Origin: Maritalea porphyrae
Lineage (GTDB): Bacteria; Pseudomonadota; Alphaproteobacteria; Rhizobiales; Devosiaceae
Direction: 5' to 3'
NCBI RefSeq assembly: GCF_030159895.1
Contig: NZ_BSNI01000002.1
Span: 1,390,306-1,454,305 of the forward strand
Length of the DNA: 64,000 nt
The notes beneath the pieces are model-generated. The model had not been told where the DNA came from and searched no databases. It worked only from the letters and a program-made list of their open reading frames with translations. Of this stretch, positions 16,518 through 41,054 are shown piece after piece. Position 1 is the stretch's first letter. Each line of letters opens with the position of its first letter. The position numbers and the translations under genes are program-made.

Positions 16518-17168
16518 TCAGCTTTTTTGTGCGATTATCTCTGCAATTGGTTTGAAATCAGCCCGATGATGCGGCGTTGCGCCTTGTGATTTCAGCGCTT
16601 TCATATGCTGTGCAGTGCCATATCCCTTATGCTTACCAAACCCATAATCGGGCAATGCGTCGCCAAGCAATTCGCACATCCGGTCGCGGGTGACCTTGGC
16701 AATGATGGACGCGGCAGCTATCGACAGGGACCTGCTATCGCCTTTAATCAATGCCTGCCCGCGGCAGGGTAGTTGGGGCGGAATATCCCGCCCATCAATC
16801 AATGCAATGTCTGGCGTTTTCGCCAAAGCTTTTACCGATTGCGCCATTGCGTGAAGCGTTGCACCGCGAATGTTGCGCTCAAAGATGGTCGTCGGCGGTG
16901 CAGAGCAAATGCCTACAAACGCTGTTTCCATGATCGCATCATAAAGCGCATCGCGCTTTTTCGCGGTCAGCTTTTTGCTATCATTCAATCCGTCCGGAAT
17001 GGCTTGATGATCAAGGATTACTGCAGCCGTAACCACCGGCCCGGCCAACGGCCCACGGCCTGCCTCATCAACACCACAAACAACTAAGCCTTTGGCGCGA
17101 AATTGTTCTTCAATCAAGAAGTCAGGTCCGTCAGGAAATAGAGAAGGCTGGGAATCGGTTTTTCGCAT
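16518..17168 (-). CDS. rnhB: Ribonuclease HII
   Basis: 216 residues. The active-site acidic residues are in VCGVDEAGRGPLAGPV (Asp-Glu near residues 34-35) and in ALIDGRDIP; the C-terminal YGFGKHKGYGTAQH stretch is the family signature. It cuts RNA in RNA-DNA hybrids and initiates ribonucleotide excision. The extreme N-terminus reads SQPSLF at residues 6-11, which resembles a sliding-clamp binding peptide. It lies upstream of ccrM in the same direction, as in many Rhizobiales, with 123 bases between. Confidence 0.94.
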   Translation of the reverse strand: MRKTDSQPSLFPDGPDFLIEEQFRAKGLVVCGVDEAGRGPLAGPVVTAAVILDHQAIPDGLNDSKKLTAKKRDALYDAIMETAFVGICSAPPTTIFERNIRGATLHAMAQSVKALAKTPDIALIDGRDIPPQLPCRGQALIKGDSRSLSIAAASIIAKVTRDRMCELLGDALPDYGFGKHKGYGTAQHMKALKSQGATPHHRADFKPIAEIIAQKS

Positions 17169-17299: not shown

Positions 17300-17383
17300 A
17301 TGCCAGATTGGCTCGACAACCGCGGCGTTTCAGCCCCGTTGGATGGTCTGATCGGGGCGTGCAAACCGGAGCAAACCCGATGA
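17300..17383 (+). CDS. Possible 27-residue leader peptide upstream of tnaA
   Basis: A short frame (ATG at 17300, TGA at 17381-17383) reading MPDWLDNRGVSAPLDGLIGA and seven more residues. Its stop overlaps the tnaA start as ATGA. E. coli TnaC, the tryptophan-sensing leader of tnaA, has Trp followed by an Asn-Ile-Asp-Asn stretch and a Pro near the stall site; here Trp4 is followed by Leu-Asp-Asn and a Pro nine residues after the Trp. There is no strong ribosome binding site and the resemblance is short, so this is a suggestion only. Confidence 0.25.
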   Translation: MPDWLDNRGVSAPLDGLIGACKPEQTR

Positions 17384-18750
17384 AAACGATCATTGAACCA
17401 TTTCGAATTAAGTCCGTAGAACCAATTCGCTTCACCACAATGGAGGAGCGCCGCGCACTGGCGAAAGACGCGCACTACAACCTTTTCAGCCTGCATGCGG
17501 ACGATGTGCTGATTGACCTTTTGACAGACAGTGGCACTTCCGCCATGAGTGCCGCGCAGTGGGGCGCCGTAATGAATGGCGATGAAAGCTATGCCGGTTC
17601 GCCTTCATTTGAGCGATTTGAAGGCGCGGTGCGCCATCTCATGGACTTCAAACACATCATACCCACGCATCAGGGCCGGGCCGCAGAGGCTATTTTGTTT
17701 TCGATTTTGGGGGGCGAAGGCAAGAAGGTACCATCGAACACGCACTTCGATACGACGCGTGGAAATATCGAAGCCACAGGCGCCCAAGCCCATGATCTTT
17801 TGATTGCTGAAGGCAAAGACCCAAGCAATCTACACCCTTTTAAAGGCAATATCGATATTGAACGGCTCGACGCTTTTCTCAAAGAGCATGGCGACGCGGT
17901 GCCGTGCGTGATGATCACGGTTACAAATAATGCTGGCGGCGGCCAACCTGTGAGCCTTGCCAATATCCGTGAAACGGCTGCAACGGCCCGCAAATATAAT
18001 TTGCCATTCATCATTGATGGGTGCCGGTTTGCTGAGAATGCCTACTTCATCAAACAGCGAGAGGAAGGGCAGGGCGATAGAGAAATCGCAGACATTGTAC
18101 GCGATATGTTCGAGTTGGCTGATGGCATGACCATGAGCGCCAAGAAAGACGCATTCGCAAATATCGGTGGATGGCTGGCGCTGAACGATGATGAGTTGGC
18201 GCAAAAGGCGCGCAACCGCTTGATCATGACCGAAGGTTTTCCAACTTATGGTGGCTTAGCCGGCCGTGATTTGGACGCGATTGCGCAGGGACTTAGCGAA
18301 ATCGTAGATGAGGAATATCTCAAATACCGGGTTCGTTCTAACGCCTATATTGTCGAGCGGTTAGACGCATTGGGCGTGCCTGTGGTCAAACCGGCTGGCG
18401 GACACGCAGTGTTTGTTGATGCACGCAGTTGGCTCCACCATATCGATCCGTTGCAATTTCCCGGGCAGGCTTTGGCTGTAGCTCTTTATGAAATGGGTGG
18501 TATCCGCGCATGCGAAATTGGCACGGTTATGTTTGGCCGCGCGCCTGATGGCAGTGAAAAACCTGCAGCGATGGATTTGGTGCGGCTTGCGATGCCGCGT
18601 CGCGTATATACCCAATCACATGCCGACTACATTGTTGAGGTCTTTGAGGAGCTAAGTGCCACCAAGGACAAGTTGCCCGGCTATCGAATAACAGAAGAGC
18701 CACAAGCGATGCGGCACTTTACCGCCAAGTTTGCGCCGATCAATGACTAA
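17380..18750 (+). CDS. tnaA: Tryptophanase
   Basis: 456 residues from the ATG at 17380 (GGAG eleven bases upstream). PLP-dependent beta-eliminating lyase with the cofactor Lys in MSAKKDAFANIGG. Two features favour tryptophanase over the close relative tyrosine phenol-lyase: an Asp in FDTTRG (the E. coli TnaA Asp137 position, Thr in the phenol-lyase) and His in MRHFTAKF (TnaA His463, Phe in the phenol-lyase). It also has the CEIGTVMFGR stretch like EIGSFLLGR of TnaA. It splits L-tryptophan to indole, pyruvate and ammonia. No tnaB permease follows. Uncommon in this bacterial group. Confidence 0.88.
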   Translation: MKTIIEPFRIKSVEPIRFTTMEERRALAKDAHYNLFSLHADDVLIDLLTDSGTSAMSAAQWGAVMNGDESYAGSPSFERFEGAVRHLMDFKHIIPTHQGRAAEAILFSILGGEGKKVPSNTHFDTTRGNIEATGAQAHDLLIAEGKDPSNLHPFKGNIDIERLDAFLKEHGDAVPCVMITVTNNAGGGQPVSLANIRETAATARKYNLPFIIDGCRFAENAYFIKQREEGQGDREIADIVRDMFELADGMTMSAKKDAFANIGGWLALNDDELAQKARNRLIMTEGFPTYGGLAGRDLDAIAQGLSEIVDEEYLKYRVRSNAYIVERLDALGVPVVKPAGGHAVFVDARSWLHHIDPLQFPGQALAVALYEMGGIRACEIGTVMFGRAPDGSEKPAAMDLVRLAMPRRVYTQSHADYIVEVFEELSATKDKLPGYRITEEPQAMRHFTAKFAPIND

Positions 18751-18757
18751 GCGGATT

Positions 18758-18781
18758 GGGTTGGGGGCTATCCCTCAACCC
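18758..18781. terminator. Terminator-like hairpin between convergent tnaA and multicopper oxidase
   Basis: GGGTTG ... CAACCC arms with an inner GGG/CCC pair; it contains the stop codon of the oxidase. It lacks a clear T tract, so it may be only a 3'-end protecting hairpin. Confidence 0.35.
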
Positions 18782-20153
18782 TCAAATAACCTGTTAGCCC
18801 AGTTTTCTGGTGCTCAATCACGTGGCAATGAAATGCCCAGTCGCCTTCATTGTCGGCGACCAGGGCCACATCCATCGTTTCGTCTGATAACAAAAGTGCC
18901 GTGTCTGTGAACAATGGCGGCAATGGGCGTTTGTCTGATCTTAACAGCTTAAAGGCCAATCCATGTAAATGAATCGGATGGTCGTTGGGTGTGTTGTTGC
19001 GCAGGCGCAAAATGTAGCTTTTGCCCTTCTTCATTACCGCCAGTGGATCAAGCGGGCCGGGCGTATCGCCCAGCCATGGCTTGCGATTGATCGACCAAAA
19101 CACATAGCCCAGTGAACCACATATGCTTTCAAGCGGTTCGCCTCCATCCGGCGTCCAACCAAAAGTAAAATCTAGAATCTCAGCATTGGTAAGGTCCGGT
19201 TCTTTTACAGGGTTATTCGGCAAGGGTTTCAAATCTGCCATGGATCGACCCAGCGATCTCCCAACGGCGCGAAATGTTGCCATCAATCGGGGACCCGCCA
19301 GCGTGTTGAGTATTAATTTAGCAGTTTCGCCTTCGCGTTCTGGCATGCGAAGCGCAATGTCGGCGCGCTGGCCAGGGCTGAGCAGAACATCCGTTGCCGG
19401 CAAAGGCGCTGGAACAGGGTGGCTGTCCAGAGCAATGACTTGAGCTTGGCCACCGTTAATTTGGTAAGTACCAACCCGGGTGACATCAGTCACGGCCAAC
19501 CGCAATCGCACCAAACTGCCAGAAGTAAGGTCATAAGTCGGCTTTTGCCGCCAATTGACCGTGGAAATGGTGCCGAGCGTGCCGCCTCTAGCAGCAAGCC
19601 GGGGCGTGAATAGCGAGACAAACTGCCCATCATTGCCGAGGCGAAAATCACGAATATTGAGCGGAAGATCTTGATCAAAGCCGACTTCTTCAGGCTCTTC
19701 AACAATCAACATACCGGTCATGCCTCGAGCCATCTGGTCAAGAGTGTTGCAGTGTGGGTGATACCAAAATGTACCTGCGTCTGGCGACCAGATATCGTAT
19801 CTGTGGGTTTCACCCATCGCAATCGGCTTTTGCGTGAGATATGGCACACCATCTTGCGCGTTTTCGTGCCGCAACCCGTGCCAATGCACAATGCTAGCTT
19901 CGCGCAAATTATTGGTCACATCGATAGACAGTTTTTGATGCTGCTTTAGCCGGATGGTCGGTGCAGGCCCGTCTGTGCCAAACCCCATCATTTGATTGGT
20001 GATGTTTTCTGGCACAATTTCGTGCGAGGTGTAGTTCAGAGGTAATTGCAAATCAGCCGACAGGGCTTTATTCGCAAACGCATAAGTTGCAGTGGAGGCG
20101 GCAAGCGTGGCGGAAGTGCCCAGCAAGAATTCGCGGCGAGACATGCCCAGCAT
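18768..20153 (-). CDS. Tat-exported multicopper oxidase
   Basis: 461 residues. A twin-arginine signal begins the protein (SRREFLLG at residues 5-12, then an Ala-rich stretch), so it should fold with copper in the cytoplasm and be exported. All four copper motifs are present: HWHG near residue 93, HPH near 132, HPIHLHG near 395 and HCHVIEHQKTGL near 443, giving the type 1, 2 and 3 sites of a three-domain laccase-like oxidase. The 'HCHVIEHQKTGL' ending resembles the CueO/bilirubin-oxidase-type group. Substrate could be Cu(I), Mn(II) or phenols; no copper-resistance genes lie nearby. Confidence 0.9.
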   Translation of the reverse strand: MLGMSRREFLLGTSATLAASTATYAFANKALSADLQLPLNYTSHEIVPENITNQMMGFGTDGPAPTIRLKQHQKLSIDVTNNLREASIVHWHGLRHENAQDGVPYLTQKPIAMGETHRYDIWSPDAGTFWYHPHCNTLDQMARGMTGMLIVEEPEEVGFDQDLPLNIRDFRLGNDGQFVSLFTPRLAARGGTLGTISTVNWRQKPTYDLTSGSLVRLRLAVTDVTRVGTYQINGGQAQVIALDSHPVPAPLPATDVLLSPGQRADIALRMPEREGETAKLILNTLAGPRLMATFRAVGRSLGRSMADLKPLPNNPVKEPDLTNAEILDFTFGWTPDGGEPLESICGSLGYVFWSINRKPWLGDTPGPLDPLAVMKKGKSYILRLRNNTPNDHPIHLHGLAFKLLRSDKRPLPPLFTDTALLLSDETMDVALVADNEGDWAFHCHVIEHQKTGLTGYLRVEG

Positions 20154-20276: not shown

Positions 20277-21431
20277 TCAAAACAAGCTGAGTTGATCATC
20301 CGTTTGTGCTGGCGGTGAAAACAAATCGGTGCGCAAATGCGGCAAGCGCTTCTTTAGACCATTCTTGTTCATCGACAACTCAAAACGACGCTGCAATTGA
20401 TAAGCATATGGACCTTGGCCGGACATGCGCGAACCATATCTGGGGTCATTATCACGTCCACCGCGCACATCGCGCACCAAATTCAATACATGCCGCAGTT
20501 TGTCAGGGTAGTACCGCAGCAACCATTCTCGGAACAAGTTGCGCACCTCTCCGGGTAAACGCAGCATAATCATGCCAGCGGAAATTGCACCTTGCGCTGC
20601 TGCAGCGTCGAGAATTTTTTCCAGTTCGCTGTCATTGATCGCCGGGATCATTGGTGCGGCCATTACCATGGTCGGGATGCCTGATTGGCTGAGCAGCTCA
20701 ACCGCCTCTAACCGTTTAGACGGCGTGGAAGCGCGTGGCTCCAGTTGACGGCTCAACTTGTGGTCAAGCGTTGTGATTGTCATCGCCACATGGACCAAAT
20801 TGTTTTTGGCCAGTTCTGTCAGCAAATCAAGGTCGCGCACCACAAGCGCAGATTTGGTGACAATGGTCACAGGGTGCTGAAACTCGACAAACACCTCGAG
20901 CAATTGCCGCATGATCTTCTTTTCACGCTCAATCGGTTGATAGGGGTCGGTATTGGTGCCGATGGCAATTGGCTTGGCCACATACTTTTTGCGGCTCAAC
21001 TCTTCGCGGAGCCTTTCAGCCGCATTTACTTTGGCATAGAGCTCGCGCTCAAAATCCAAGCCAGCCGAATGCCCCAAATAAGCGTGTGTTTGACGCGCGA
21101 AACAATAAGAGCAGCCATGTTCGCAACCGCGATAGGGATTGATAGATCGATCAAAATTGAGGTCAGGAGACTCGTTCTTGGTGATGATAGTCTTCGCACG
21201 TTCGTCGCGCACATTTGTTTTAAATGCGTCTAGTGTGTCCAATGACTGCCAACCATCATCAAAGGTTTCGTTCTGAAAAATCTCATAGCGTCCTGAAACA
21301 TTGCTTTGCGCCCCTCGGCCACGATTGCGCCCAGGGTTGACCATTTTATTGGTCAAAATGTCATGATCAGCGCTTTTAGCGATGCGCGCCAGACTGTCTG
21401 GCGGTGGCGGGAATGCAGCGTGAATTGCCAT
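20277..21431 (-). CDS. PA0069/Rv2578c-family radical SAM protein with clamp-binding tail
   Basis: 384 residues. The radical SAM cluster motif is CEHGCSYC at about residues 104-111 (C-X3-C-X2-C), inside the family phrase NPYRGCEHGCSYCFAR; the barrel continues through IGTNTDPYQPIE and TIVTKSALVVRD. The family is related to spore photoproduct lyase (SplB) but has no known reaction. The last five residues, QLSLF (380-384), match the consensus beta-sliding-clamp peptide QL[SD]LF exactly. Its promoter contains a LexA box (next entry). Together these point to a role in DNA repair or damage tolerance; the chemistry is unknown. Confidence 0.88.
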   Translation of the reverse strand: MAIHAAFPPPPDSLARIAKSADHDILTNKMVNPGRNRGRGAQSNVSGRYEIFQNETFDDGWQSLDTLDAFKTNVRDERAKTIITKNESPDLNFDRSINPYRGCEHGCSYCFARQTHAYLGHSAGLDFERELYAKVNAAERLREELSRKKYVAKPIAIGTNTDPYQPIEREKKIMRQLLEVFVEFQHPVTIVTKSALVVRDLDLLTELAKNNLVHVAMTITTLDHKLSRQLEPRASTPSKRLEAVELLSQSGIPTMVMAAPMIPAINDSELEKILDAAAAQGAISAGMIMLRLPGEVRNLFREWLLRYYPDKLRHVLNLVRDVRGGRDNDPRYGSRMSGQGPYAYQLQRRFELSMNKNGLKKRLPHLRTDLFSPPAQTDDQLSLF

Positions 21432-21471
21432 TTTGACCTCGCGATTGAAAGGTTAACAAATCGTTCTAACT

Positions 21472-21501
21472 AAATAGAACAAAATGAGAACAAAAAGTCA
21501 A
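21472..21501 (-). promoter_or_regulatory. SOS promoter with alphaproteobacterial LexA box
   Basis: On the reverse strand, -35 TTGACT (21496-21501), then GTTC-TCATTTT-GTTC (21477-21491), then a weak -10 (TCTATT or CTATTT at 21472-21478). GTTC-N7-GTTC is the direct-repeat LexA site of alphaproteobacteria. It lies about 46 bases before the radical SAM start, overlapping the promoter as expected for repression. Confidence 0.75.
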
Positions 21502-38756: not shown

Positions 38757-41054
38757 GTGCCGCTAACTGTATCCCAACAAATGTTCGCGATTGCACCAGC
38801 GAACGAACGCCCGCTTCTGTCGCGTGAGCAAGAGCGCTTGGTTGTGGGAAAAGCGGCTTGGGTATTCGCTATGGCGAGATCTGGTCAGCGCGTTTGCCCA
38901 ACGATCTGCATCACGCGAGAGGCTTGGGAAGCTGTAAAGTCAGCAAAGCCGGGAAGTCCACTACACACCAATTGGGTCGCAGCGCTTTTCAAATTGGTTC
39001 CAAAGGGTGAAGAGCCGCCTCAGCTTGTGGTGCGGACTGCAGCGCAAACGCACATGGCTGGCTTGGCTCGTGTACGCGGCAAAGTCGATGCGCCAAAGCG
39101 CGAAAGCGATGCGGCCGACACATCGAAGCCGCTTGGGCGTGCAATTGATAGGGCGTTCGAATCATATCTGCACGGCACACCAGTTTGGACAATTGATACG
39201 GGCCGCGATTTGTCGCTTGAGCAAATCGTTTTGGTGCAAGCCGCGACCGAACAAAAACCGTTTTCAATTTTGACACGCAGCACATCAACTGGTGAACTCG
39301 GGCCATTCAAGTTGCAAGGGCAACCCGAACTGCCACAACTGGCCAATCCCGTTGCAGCCAAGCAGCTCTGCCGCAAGATGGATGCGCTTTCCGGCGCACA
39401 CATGGTTTGCCTTGTTGCTGAGGACAAAGGTGAACTCGTTTTCTTGTCCGCTCGACCAGTCCAGGCAAACATCTCGGCGAATTTGGAAGCTGCAATAGAC
39501 CGGGTGAGCAATGGTGATTGGACGCCGCGTAAAGCGGTGTCGGAAATCGATCCAGCACAATTGCCGCAAATACTGCACCCACGCCTAACGGGTAAGAAAC
39601 GCGGTACACCGCTTTCCAACGGCCTTGGTGTATCTCCTGGCGCCGCCAGTGGCGCAATTGTGTTTTCATCAGAGGACGCGTCGCGATACCGCGCACGCGG
39701 CAAAGATTGCATATTGGTTAGCGTTGAAACTGGACCATCCGATATCGAAGGTATGCAGGCTGCCGCGGGCATCCTAACTGCGCGCGGTGGCATAACTAGC
39801 CATGCTGCTGTGATCGCGCGCGTGACAGGAAAACCATGTGTTGCCGGCGTGCGCACCATGTCGATTGACCCAGACCATACAAAGGTGCGCCTTGGCGAGC
39901 GTGAGTTTTTGGCTGGTGCGGAAATCACAATCGATGGTGGCACGGGCGAAGTCTATGCGGGCGCGTTGCCGCTCAGTCAGCCAAAAATCGGGGGTGCACT
40001 GGGCACGCTGCTTGATTGGGCAGATGGCAGTCGCACGATTGAAGTGCGTACGAACGTAGAAACAGAAGAGTCAGCACGCATTGCGCTTTCATTTGGTGCA
40101 GAAGGTATTGGCTTGGCGCGTTCCGAGCATATGTTCTTTTCGACCGAGCGTATGGTTGCACTGCGGCGTATGATCTTTTCGCAAAATGATCGCGACCGTA
40201 AACAAGCACTGGATGGTTTAGTCGAATATCAAGCAGATGATTACGCAAGGCTCTTTTCCACCATGGAAGGGTTGCCCATCACTGTTCGTCTGTTCGATCC
40301 ACCTTTGCATGAGTTTCTGCCGCGAAGCGAAGAGGAGCTTGAAGACGCCGCTGCGTCATTGGGGCTTGAAACTGAACGGCTGCGCAATCGACTTGAGCGC
40401 ATGGCGGAAGTGAATCCGATGCTTGGGCACCGTGGCTGTCGGTTGGCAATTTCACATCCCGAAATATTGGATATGCAAATTCGAGCGTTGATTGCTGGCG
40501 CGCGCGCTGCAATTGATGCACATGATATTCAAGTCAATTTAGAAATAATGGTGCCGTTCGTATCATCCGCACGTGAGGTGAATTGGGTGCGGACGAAAAT
40601 CCTGCAATTAATGGAGCGGTTGGGTGTCAATCAAACCGAGAGCTTCAAGTTTTCTATTGGAACGATGATCGAACTGCCACGGGCCGCTTTGCGTGCTTAT
40701 GATATTGCAAAGCATGTGGACTTCTTTTCATTCGGCACAAACGATTTAACGCAAACGACATTTGGCATCTCGCGTGATGACGCACCAGCATTTTTGGCGA
40801 CCTATCAGCGGCGTGGTCTCTATGATGCTGATCCCTTTGTTACAATTGACAAAAAGGGTGTCGGTGAACTGATCAAGATTGCCATTCAGCGCGGCAAAGA
40901 AGCTAATCCGGATCTCAAAATCGGGATTTGTGGCGAGCATGCGGGCGATCCGGAAAGTCTGCGATTCTTTGCGGGATTGAACGTTGATTATGTGAGTTGC
41001 TCACCTTATCGCTTGCCAATTGCTCGTCTTGCCCTTGCTCAGTCGCAAAACTAG
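38757..41054 (+). CDS. Pyruvate phosphate dikinase-like protein with degenerate ATP-grasp domain
   Basis: 765 residues if started at the GTG at 38757; a GTG at 38655 would leave no room for a promoter. The swivel domain has the phospho-His loop LTARGGITSHAAVIAR (about 370-385) and the C-terminal barrel keeps VRLFDPPLHEF, NPMLGHRGCRLA, SIGTMIELPRAA, FFSFGTNDLTQTTF, CGEHAGDPES and the catalytic Cys in SCSPYRLPIARLA, so PEP/pyruvate chemistry looks intact. The N-terminal 290 residues align only loosely with the ATP domain: the GGKGANLAEM loop reads VVGKAAWVFAM, SVRSGARASMPG reads VVRTAAQTHMAG, and about 100 residues are missing. Probably not a working dikinase; maybe a PEP-dependent regulator. 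Confidence 0.8.
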   Translation: MPLTVSQQMFAIAPANERPLLSREQERLVVGKAAWVFAMARSGQRVCPTICITREAWEAVKSAKPGSPLHTNWVAALFKLVPKGEEPPQLVVRTAAQTHMAGLARVRGKVDAPKRESDAADTSKPLGRAIDRAFESYLHGTPVWTIDTGRDLSLEQIVLVQAATEQKPFSILTRSTSTGELGPFKLQGQPELPQLANPVAAKQLCRKMDALSGAHMVCLVAEDKGELVFLSARPVQANISANLEAAIDRVSNGDWTPRKAVSEIDPAQLPQILHPRLTGKKRGTPLSNGLGVSPGAASGAIVFSSEDASRYRARGKDCILVSVETGPSDIEGMQAAAGILTARGGITSHAAVIARVTGKPCVAGVRTMSIDPDHTKVRLGEREFLAGAEITIDGGTGEVYAGALPLSQPKIGGALGTLLDWADGSRTIEVRTNVETEESARIALSFGAEGIGLARSEHMFFSTERMVALRRMIFSQNDRDRKQALDGLVEYQADDYARLFSTMEGLPITVRLFDPPLHEFLPRSEEELEDAAASLGLETERLRNRLERMAEVNPMLGHRGCRLAISHPEILDMQIRALIAGARAAIDAHDIQVNLEIMVPFVSSAREVNWVRTKILQLMERLGVNQTESFKFSIGTMIELPRAALRAYDIAKHVDFFSFGTNDLTQTTFGISRDDAPAFLATYQRRGLYDADPFVTIDKKGVGELIKIAIQRGKEANPDLKIGICGEHAGDPESLRFFAGLNVDYVSCSPYRLPIARLALAQSQN

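What the first reader, a model, noticed from the sequence alone, without database searches (positions are those of the whole stretch)
20277..21501. SOS-regulated radical SAM protein carrying a sliding-clamp peptide
Seen: GTTC-N7-GTTC (21477-21491) lies between a TTGACT -35 and a TCTATT-like -10, 46 bases before a PA0069/Rv2578c-type radical SAM gene, and the protein ends with QLSLF. Known: GTTC-N7-GTTC is the LexA site of alphaproteobacteria; QL[SD]LF is the consensus beta-clamp peptide; this radical SAM family is related to spore photoproduct lyase and has no known reaction. Inference: two independent signals, damage induction and clamp docking, indicate a DNA-lesion repair or tolerance enzyme working at replication forks.
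Basis: partly seen in the sequence, partly recalled or inferred. Interest (0 to 1): 0.8.

Follow-up and report, generated by a model that had tools for sequence, protein, structure and literature searches.

The report
SOS-controlled radical enzyme with clamp-binding tail
This gene makes an uncharacterised iron-sulfur radical enzyme predicted to be shaped like a known DNA-repair lyase; a DNA-damage switch in front of the gene and a replication-clamp-type peptide at the protein's end are kept in most of the relatives examined, so it probably works on damaged DNA at replication sites.

Summary
A PA0069-family radical SAM protein (20277-21431, minus strand) ends in QLSLF, and GTTC-N7-GTTC lies in its promoter (21477-21491). 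In this genome alone the box is not above chance; conservation decides. The exact box precedes 65 of 65 order-level copies and 78 of 89 class-level copies, against 2 of 325 and 7 of 445 shuffles. Outside the class, 18 of 31 copies carry the E. coli-type box instead. A C-terminal QxxL[FLI] peptide is present in 63 of 65, 76 of 91 and 31 of 31 copies, against 12 of 1092 other ORFs. Nine of 15 chosen distant relatives end in a similar peptide. The predicted fold is closest to spore photoproduct lyase, but the lyase family model is not matched and no fourth cysteine is conserved. LexA control of 'splB' is already in print (PMC3323433); the clamp-type tail was not found in the papers searched. Best reading: an SOS-induced, clamp-tethered radical enzyme acting on abnormal nucleotides. 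Clamp binding, induction, substrate and reaction are untested.

The parts
20277..21431 (-). PA0069-family radical SAM protein, 384 aa (NF033668; Pfam Radical_SAM residues 97-276)
   Evidence: predicted model pLDDT 92.5
20280..20294 (-). C-terminal clamp-type pentapeptide QLSLF (residues 380-384)
   Evidence: Q380 in 77 and L383 in 76 of 79 aligned rows; QxxL[FLI] in the last 30 residues in 63/65, 76/91 and 31/31 copies, looser pattern 65/65, 89/91, 31/31 and 80/80 named copies
20295..20309 (-). linker before the tail (residues 375-379), variable in sequence and length
   Evidence: 1.0-1.7 bits per column, with gaps, against over 4 bits at Q380 and L383; pLDDT falls to 77 and 62 in the last two blocks
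20310..20336 (-). short conserved element before the linker (residues 366-374, L366, F371 and P374 most conserved); role unknown
   Evidence: F371 in 77 and P374 in 73 of 79 rows
21102..21125 (-). radical SAM cluster motif C103-x3-C107-x2-C110
   Evidence: invariant in 79 of 79 rows; no other conserved cysteine
21477..21491 (-). LexA-type box GTTC-N7-GTTC
   Evidence: the same pattern precedes lexA and the uvrA/ssb pair of this genome
21496..21501 (-). -35 like TTGACT
   Evidence: read by eye; TTGACA in L049 and L051
21473..21478 (-). -10 like TCTATT, overlapping the box
   Evidence: read by eye; kept in L049 and L051
16518..17168 (-). RNase HII gene; in most order-level relatives it lies downstream of the radical SAM gene on the same strand, here separated from it by two genes

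Best explanation
An SOS-regulated, clamp-tethered radical SAM enzyme. LexA sits on the box inside the promoter and keeps the gene low; RecA-triggered LexA cleavage after DNA damage turns it on (inferred; the conserved box and SOS genes sharing it are shown). The short variable linker and the QLxLF peptide dock the protein in the hydrophobic cleft of the beta sliding clamp (inferred from motif conservation). That holds the spore-photoproduct-lyase-like catalytic domain next to DNA, where a SAM-derived 5'-deoxyadenosyl radical attacks an abnormal nucleotide, most likely reversing a base lesion directly without cutting the strand (inferred from the predicted fold and the cluster motif). The exact lesion is unknown.
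Against: No experiment. Clamp-type peptides are short; conservation shows selection, not the partner. Likeness to the lyase is 14% identity and does not give the substrate. A fourth conserved cysteine, which I recall the lyase needs as hydrogen donor, is absent. CTGT-N8-ACAG is missing in 13 of 31 non-class copies (one of these has TTAGCAATAATACTAA), and no shuffle control was run for it. In the class set 11 of 89 lack the exact box: 9 have one mismatch, which shuffles also give in 85 of 445, and L156 and L180 have none. L180 has no tail either, although its genome has a LexA match over the cut-off. L354 has a degenerate or absent tail and at best a one-mismatch box. Of 46 genome boxes examined many lie inside ORFs and some precede genes with no SOS link, such as DUF2157, rhodanese and GGDEF proteins; recA was not checked.
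Confidence: 0.62

Rival explanations
1. The enzyme works with the SOS mutasome (ImuA-ImuB-DnaE2): it prepares or modifies templates for translesion synthesis, or uses its clamp peptide mainly to compete with other clamp clients during polymerase exchange.
For: In 190 class genomes, 74 have both an over-cut-off copy of this gene and an over-cut-off DnaE2-type polymerase, 18 only the gene, 13 only the polymerase and 85 neither. A box precedes a gene weakly matching ImuA near the DnaE2 gene in this genome.
Against: 18 genomes have the gene without an over-cut-off DnaE2 (in G240 the DnaE2 is split over contig ends); in these, 15 of 18 copies keep the exact box and 16 of 18 the tail. Genome size and relatedness confound the association. 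A pure competitor would not need an invariant radical SAM cluster.
Confidence: 0.18
2. The substrate is ribonucleotide-related (a ribonucleotide or RNA end in DNA, or an oxidised ribo lesion), handled together with RNase HII encoded nearby.
For: RNase HII is downstream on the same strand in 67 of 80 named loci and in 20 of 29, 16 of 29 and 26 of 28 loci of three other sets, in some cases overlapping or within 50 bp.
Against: Many gaps exceed 100 bp and some 1 kb, so a separate promoter is possible. RNase HII was not found within 1.5 kb in 13 of 29 class loci, and the pair is separated in the window itself. No sequence feature points to ribonucleotides.
Confidence: 0.1
3. It is an ordinary spore photoproduct lyase, repairing the spore photoproduct or a related UV thymine dimer, that happens to be under LexA, as PMC3323433 proposed under the name splB.
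For: Best structural match is the lyase, including an entry with a bound dinucleoside photoproduct; published proposal.
Against: No match to the lyase family model at E 0.001 (the model, TIGR04070, does appear for the weak paralogue L096, far below its cut-off). No fourth conserved cysteine in 79 rows. I recall the spore photoproduct as a lesion of dehydrated spore DNA and these bacteria as not making such spores.
Confidence: 0.1

Closest known systems
PA0069 family radical SAM protein (NF033668) and Rv2578c family (NF038135)
   Same: The window protein is a member of the first (536 bits, cut-off 360) and a distant relative of the second. Four plasmid-borne actinobacterial relatives end in clamp-type peptides (QLTLL, QLRLL, QEPLF, QESLF), two of them with an exact GAAC-N4-GTTC upstream.
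   Different: NCBIfam gives no function for the PA0069 family (kind: hypoth_equivalog). The Rv2578c model stops before the tail (L335 matched to residue 308 of 345).
Spore photoproduct lyase SplB (PDB 4fhf and relatives)
   Different: 14% identity; no family-model match; no fourth conserved cysteine; linker and clamp-type peptide lie beyond the last residue aligned with the lyase.
LexA-regulated splB of alpha- and beta-proteobacteria (PMC3323433) and SplB-like SOS genes (PMC8565304, PMC3765255)
   Same: Very probably the same gene kind: a COG1533-type radical SAM gene with LexA sites of two motif types.
   Different: No clamp motif in the texts seen: 'clamp' 0 times in the main text of PMC3323433 and of PMC3765255 (the search listing counted one). 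PMC3323433 calls the product a photolyase and does not see the trait in the gamma-proteobacteria; here a named gamma-proteobacterial copy (Aeromonas caviae, L333) has CTGTATATATAAACAG upstream.
Beta-clamp clients with QLxLF-type peptides (Pol IV, UmuC, MutS, Hda; recalled)
   Same: Same peptide class, including hexapeptide forms such as QLTLGL and QMALDL in some relatives.
   Different: Those are polymerases, mismatch-repair or initiation proteins. I know of no radical SAM client, and the searches showed none (0, 5 and 4 papers listed; only PMC3765255 was opened).

Membership tests
PA0069 family radical SAM protein (NF033668) | score above the curated cut-off over the full model | tested here: met
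   536.2 bits against 360, positions 1-348 of 348
Rv2578c family (NF038135) | score above the curated cut-off (430 bits) | tested here: not met
   229.1 bits
Spore photoproduct lyase | match to the NCBIfam lyase model (TIGR04070) | tested here: not met
   not among the matches at E 0.001; the model is in the library (protein 7)
Spore photoproduct lyase | lyase fold | tested here: met
Spore photoproduct lyase | conserved fourth cysteine as hydrogen donor (role recalled) | tested here: not met
   only C103, C107 and C110 conserved; next best column has Cys in 28 of 79 rows
Spore photoproduct lyase | reversal of spore photoproduct | not testable with these tools
   needs an enzyme assay
LexA regulon, alphaproteobacteria | GTTC-N7-GTTC in the promoter, conserved in relatives | tested here: met
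LexA regulon, alphaproteobacteria | LexA binding and damage induction | not testable with these tools
   needs EMSA and a transcript assay
Beta-clamp binding proteins | QxxL[F/L]-type peptide, conserved, at a flexible end | tested here: met
Beta-clamp binding proteins | binding to DnaN through that peptide | not testable with these tools
   no complex prediction offered; needs a binding assay

The most novel reading that the evidence does not exclude
A widespread class of direct-reversal enzymes in several phyla is carried by the sliding clamp itself: SPL-fold radical SAM proteins, in many lineages switched on by LexA and docked through a C-terminal peptide, that repair a still unknown lesion or misincorporated nucleotide at the fork without excision. 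Clamp docking may be older than any single LexA motif, since four clostridial relatives keep a clamp-type or clamp-like end although no GAAC-N4-GTTC site with up to one mismatch was found upstream.
Probability: 0.4. Interest if true: 0.85.

Novelty: new variant of a known kind. Interest (0 to 1): 0.62.

Why it matters
The damage response of many bacteria appears to include this gene, yet I know of no reaction for it. A conserved clamp-type peptide says where the enzyme should act and gives a simple test (tail mutant against wild type) that separates docking from catalysis. If confirmed, radical-based direct reversal would join polymerases and mismatch repair among clamp-directed activities, and a family named only after a locus number would get a testable function.

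Tried and rejected
Box significance from one genome: rejected as evidence. The second window match of the pattern (40660-40674) lies inside a 799-aa ORF and was not pursued.

One-mismatch boxes: shuffles give them in 76 of 325 and 85 of 445, so the 9 one-mismatch class copies count little.

Clamp-like QPSLF near the N-terminus of the window's RNase HII: 0 of 68 RNase HII relatives have QxxL[FLY] there, so treated as chance.

The loose tail pattern is weak alone (88 of 1092 other ORFs in the last 30 residues); the stricter forms carry the argument (12 of 1092; 2 of 1092 in the last 9). The 1092 are six-frame stop-to-stop ORFs of 200 aa or more in the loci of sets A and D, not verified genes.

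Rows left out of counts: contig-edge fragments L097, L098 and L100 (ends QLDLF, QIPLF, QLSLF) and L099 (no hit); G050's second fragment was not fetched; split copies in G145 and G125. Of 47 non-class copies listed, 31 were fetched, and that list was itself cut.

Sequence search of solved structures gave no lyase match; only the fold search did. Phage relatives are distant: no place covers 80% of the query. No clamp-type end was seen in two mobile pair B proteins, Paenibacillus, Runella, Nostoc, one Pseudomonas phage or the weak paralogues L096, L349-L351 and L353, and no box of the types sought, except a CTGT-N8-ACAG match 410 bp upstream in Selenomonas pair B. L352 is cut by a contig end.

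Literature. PMC2238201 and PMC4951493 are not held. That PA0069 and Rv2578c are LexA-regulated in Pseudomonas and Mycobacterium is recalled, not seen.

Full report
The gene. The ORF at 20277-21431 on the minus strand encodes 384 residues. It belongs to NF033668, PA0069 family radical SAM protein, at 536 bits against a cut-off of 360, matched to the last profile position; the next best family, Rv2578c, is well below its own cut-off. Pfam sees only the Radical_SAM domain. The genome holds one match.

The promoter. GTTCTCATTTTGTTC lies at 21477-21491. Read by eye on the minus strand, TTGACT, 17 bp and TCTATT surround it, so the box fills the promoter spacer. In two same-genus relatives (L049, L051) the surroundings have diverged but TTGACA, the box and TCTATT stay; three others have a box in another layout. 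By count alone the pattern is unremarkable: 2 in the window against 1.99 expected, and 77 in the genome against 265 for the reversed pattern. I examined 46 of the 77 or so genome matches, partly chosen for AT-rich spacers. Many lie inside ORFs and some precede genes with no SOS link (DUF2157, rhodanese, GGDEF). Others precede lexA (two sites), the divergent uvrA/ssb pair, a gene with a UvrB_inter domain and a ComM-like gene, and a gene with a weak ImuA match shortly before a DnaE2-type polymerase. recA was not checked.

Conservation of the box. One search covered 81 genomes and found 66 over-cut-off copies; I used 65 (set A; the missing one is a contig-edge fragment in G050). All 65 have the exact box within 400 bp upstream to 150 bp downstream of the estimated start, and 64 of 65 in the narrower window. 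One search covered 190 genomes drawn across the class; 92 had an over-cut-off copy including our own. Of the other 91, 89 were fetched first (set B): exact box in 78, one mismatch in 9, none in L156 and L180. Shuffles gave 2 of 325 and 7 of 445 exact boxes. Other spacings from 3 to 12 occur in at most 4 (A) and 3 (B) copies. The last two were fetched later: L354 has at best one mismatch, and L355 is cut at a contig end. Among 80 named genomes (set D), 76 have the exact box; these overlap the same order and are not independent.

A different box elsewhere. Outside the class I fetched 31 of the 47 copies listed (set C). Eighteen carry CTGT-N8-ACAG, the E. coli type of LexA site (type recalled): 13 of 20 and 5 of 11. 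By arithmetic about 0.6% each would be expected; no shuffle was run. One more has TTAGCAATAATACTAA; the other 12 show neither. The exact alpha-type box was absent from the 19 copies with enough upstream sequence and from the 11. So the gene often stays under LexA while the site changes, as PMC3323433 argued in 2012 for splB in alpha- and beta-proteobacteria (section 8 read).

The tail. In a 79-row alignment (13 rows of set A, about half of set B, 20 of set C, the weak paralogue L096 and the window) Q380 is kept in 77 rows and L383 in 76. The five positions before it carry 1.0-1.7 bits and vary in length, against over 4 bits at these two. QxxL[FLI] occurs in the last 30 residues in 63 of 65 (A), 76 of 91 (B with L354, L355) and 31 of 31 (C) copies, against 12 of 1092 other ORFs. 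The looser pattern, which admits hexapeptides such as QLTLGL, gives 65 of 65, 89 of 91 and 31 of 31 and 80 of 80 (D), against 88 of 1092. The strict form in the last nine residues is in 208 of 234 copies of A, B and D against 2 of 1092. L180 lacks both tail and box, although its genome has a LexA match over the cut-off. L354 has a degenerate or absent tail.

Distant relatives. From the plasmid and phage lists I picked 15 distant relatives. Nine end in a clamp-type or clamp-like peptide: Streptomyces (QLTLL, with GAACATGTGTTC upstream), Nonomuraea (QLRLL, with GAACTGCTGTTC), Arthrobacter (QEPLF), Tsukamurella (QESLF), Gemmatirosa (QLSLGI), Acetoanaerobium (QLSFF), Roseburia (QQSLFD), Subdoligranulum (QLSFL) and, less clearly, Monoglobus (QLGF). 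Only the first two have an exact GAAC-N4-GTTC. Six do not: two mobile pair B proteins, Paenibacillus, Runella, Nostoc and a Pseudomonas phage. Five weak alphaproteobacterial paralogues with complete ends (L096, L349-L351, L353) lack it too. The tail therefore looks like a property of one branch, not of all SPL-like proteins; no tree was built.

Context. In 190 class genomes the gene and a DnaE2-type polymerase (both over cut-off) co-occur in 74; 18 have only the gene, 13 only the polymerase, 85 neither. Of the 18, 15 keep the exact box and 16 the tail. A LexA match at E 0.001 exists in 91 of 92 genomes with the gene and 69 of 98 without (Fisher tests). RNase HII follows on the same strand in 67 of 80 named loci and in 20 of 29, 16 of 29 and 26 of 28 loci of other sets. 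In the window a tryptophanase-family gene and a multicopper oxidase gene lie between the two.

Reading. Shown: family, box, conserved tail, predicted fold. Inferred: LexA repression, clamp docking, action on DNA, direct reversal. I put about 0.95 on LexA control, 0.85 on clamp binding and 0.6 on DNA as substrate; these are judgements. LexA control was already published for this kind of gene. For the tail, (open-licence PubMed Central only) listed no paper that, from title, abstract start or the one opened, links SOS radical SAM proteins to a clamp motif; this does not prove there is none.

Noticed in passing
window 16518-17168 and 20277-21431; loci: RNase HII lies downstream of the radical SAM gene on the same strand in 67 of 80 named loci, and an N6/N4 DNA methylase in 19 of 80, sometimes with RNase HII overlapping; RNase HII may share the SOS promoter.
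   Followed up: partly
window 17308-20153: A tryptophanase-family gene (plus strand) and a multicopper oxidase gene sit between the radical SAM gene and RNase HII here, whereas same-genus L049 has RNase HII about 135 bp downstream: a possible recent insertion.
   Followed up: partly
promoters of class set L101-L189: In 51 of 75 copies with a measured distance the start codon lies 38-42 bp after the box start. Over 140 order and class boxes the spacer favours TTG, 17 bp before a TA...T element. LexA site, -35, -10 and start codon look welded together, possibly giving leaderless mRNA.
   Followed up: partly
L012 (G000:C2:4038) and L021 (G000:C2:155012): AT-rich exact boxes sit at the start of small ORFs of 138 and 132 aa without NCBIfam match: candidate new SOS genes.
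   Followed up: no
L223 upstream region: A long near-perfect palindrome (TGATCAATATAG...CTATATTGATCA) lies just upstream of the radical SAM gene where no known LexA box was found.
   Followed up: no
residues 366-374 of the protein (window 20310-20336): A second short element is conserved just before the variable linker (F371 in 77 and P374 in 73 of 79 rows); role unknown.
   Followed up: no
G145:C3 (L356) and G125:C351 (L357): Split copies of the gene in two draft genomes; the piece read in G125 ends in QINLF and an exact box lies in its locus.
   Followed up: no
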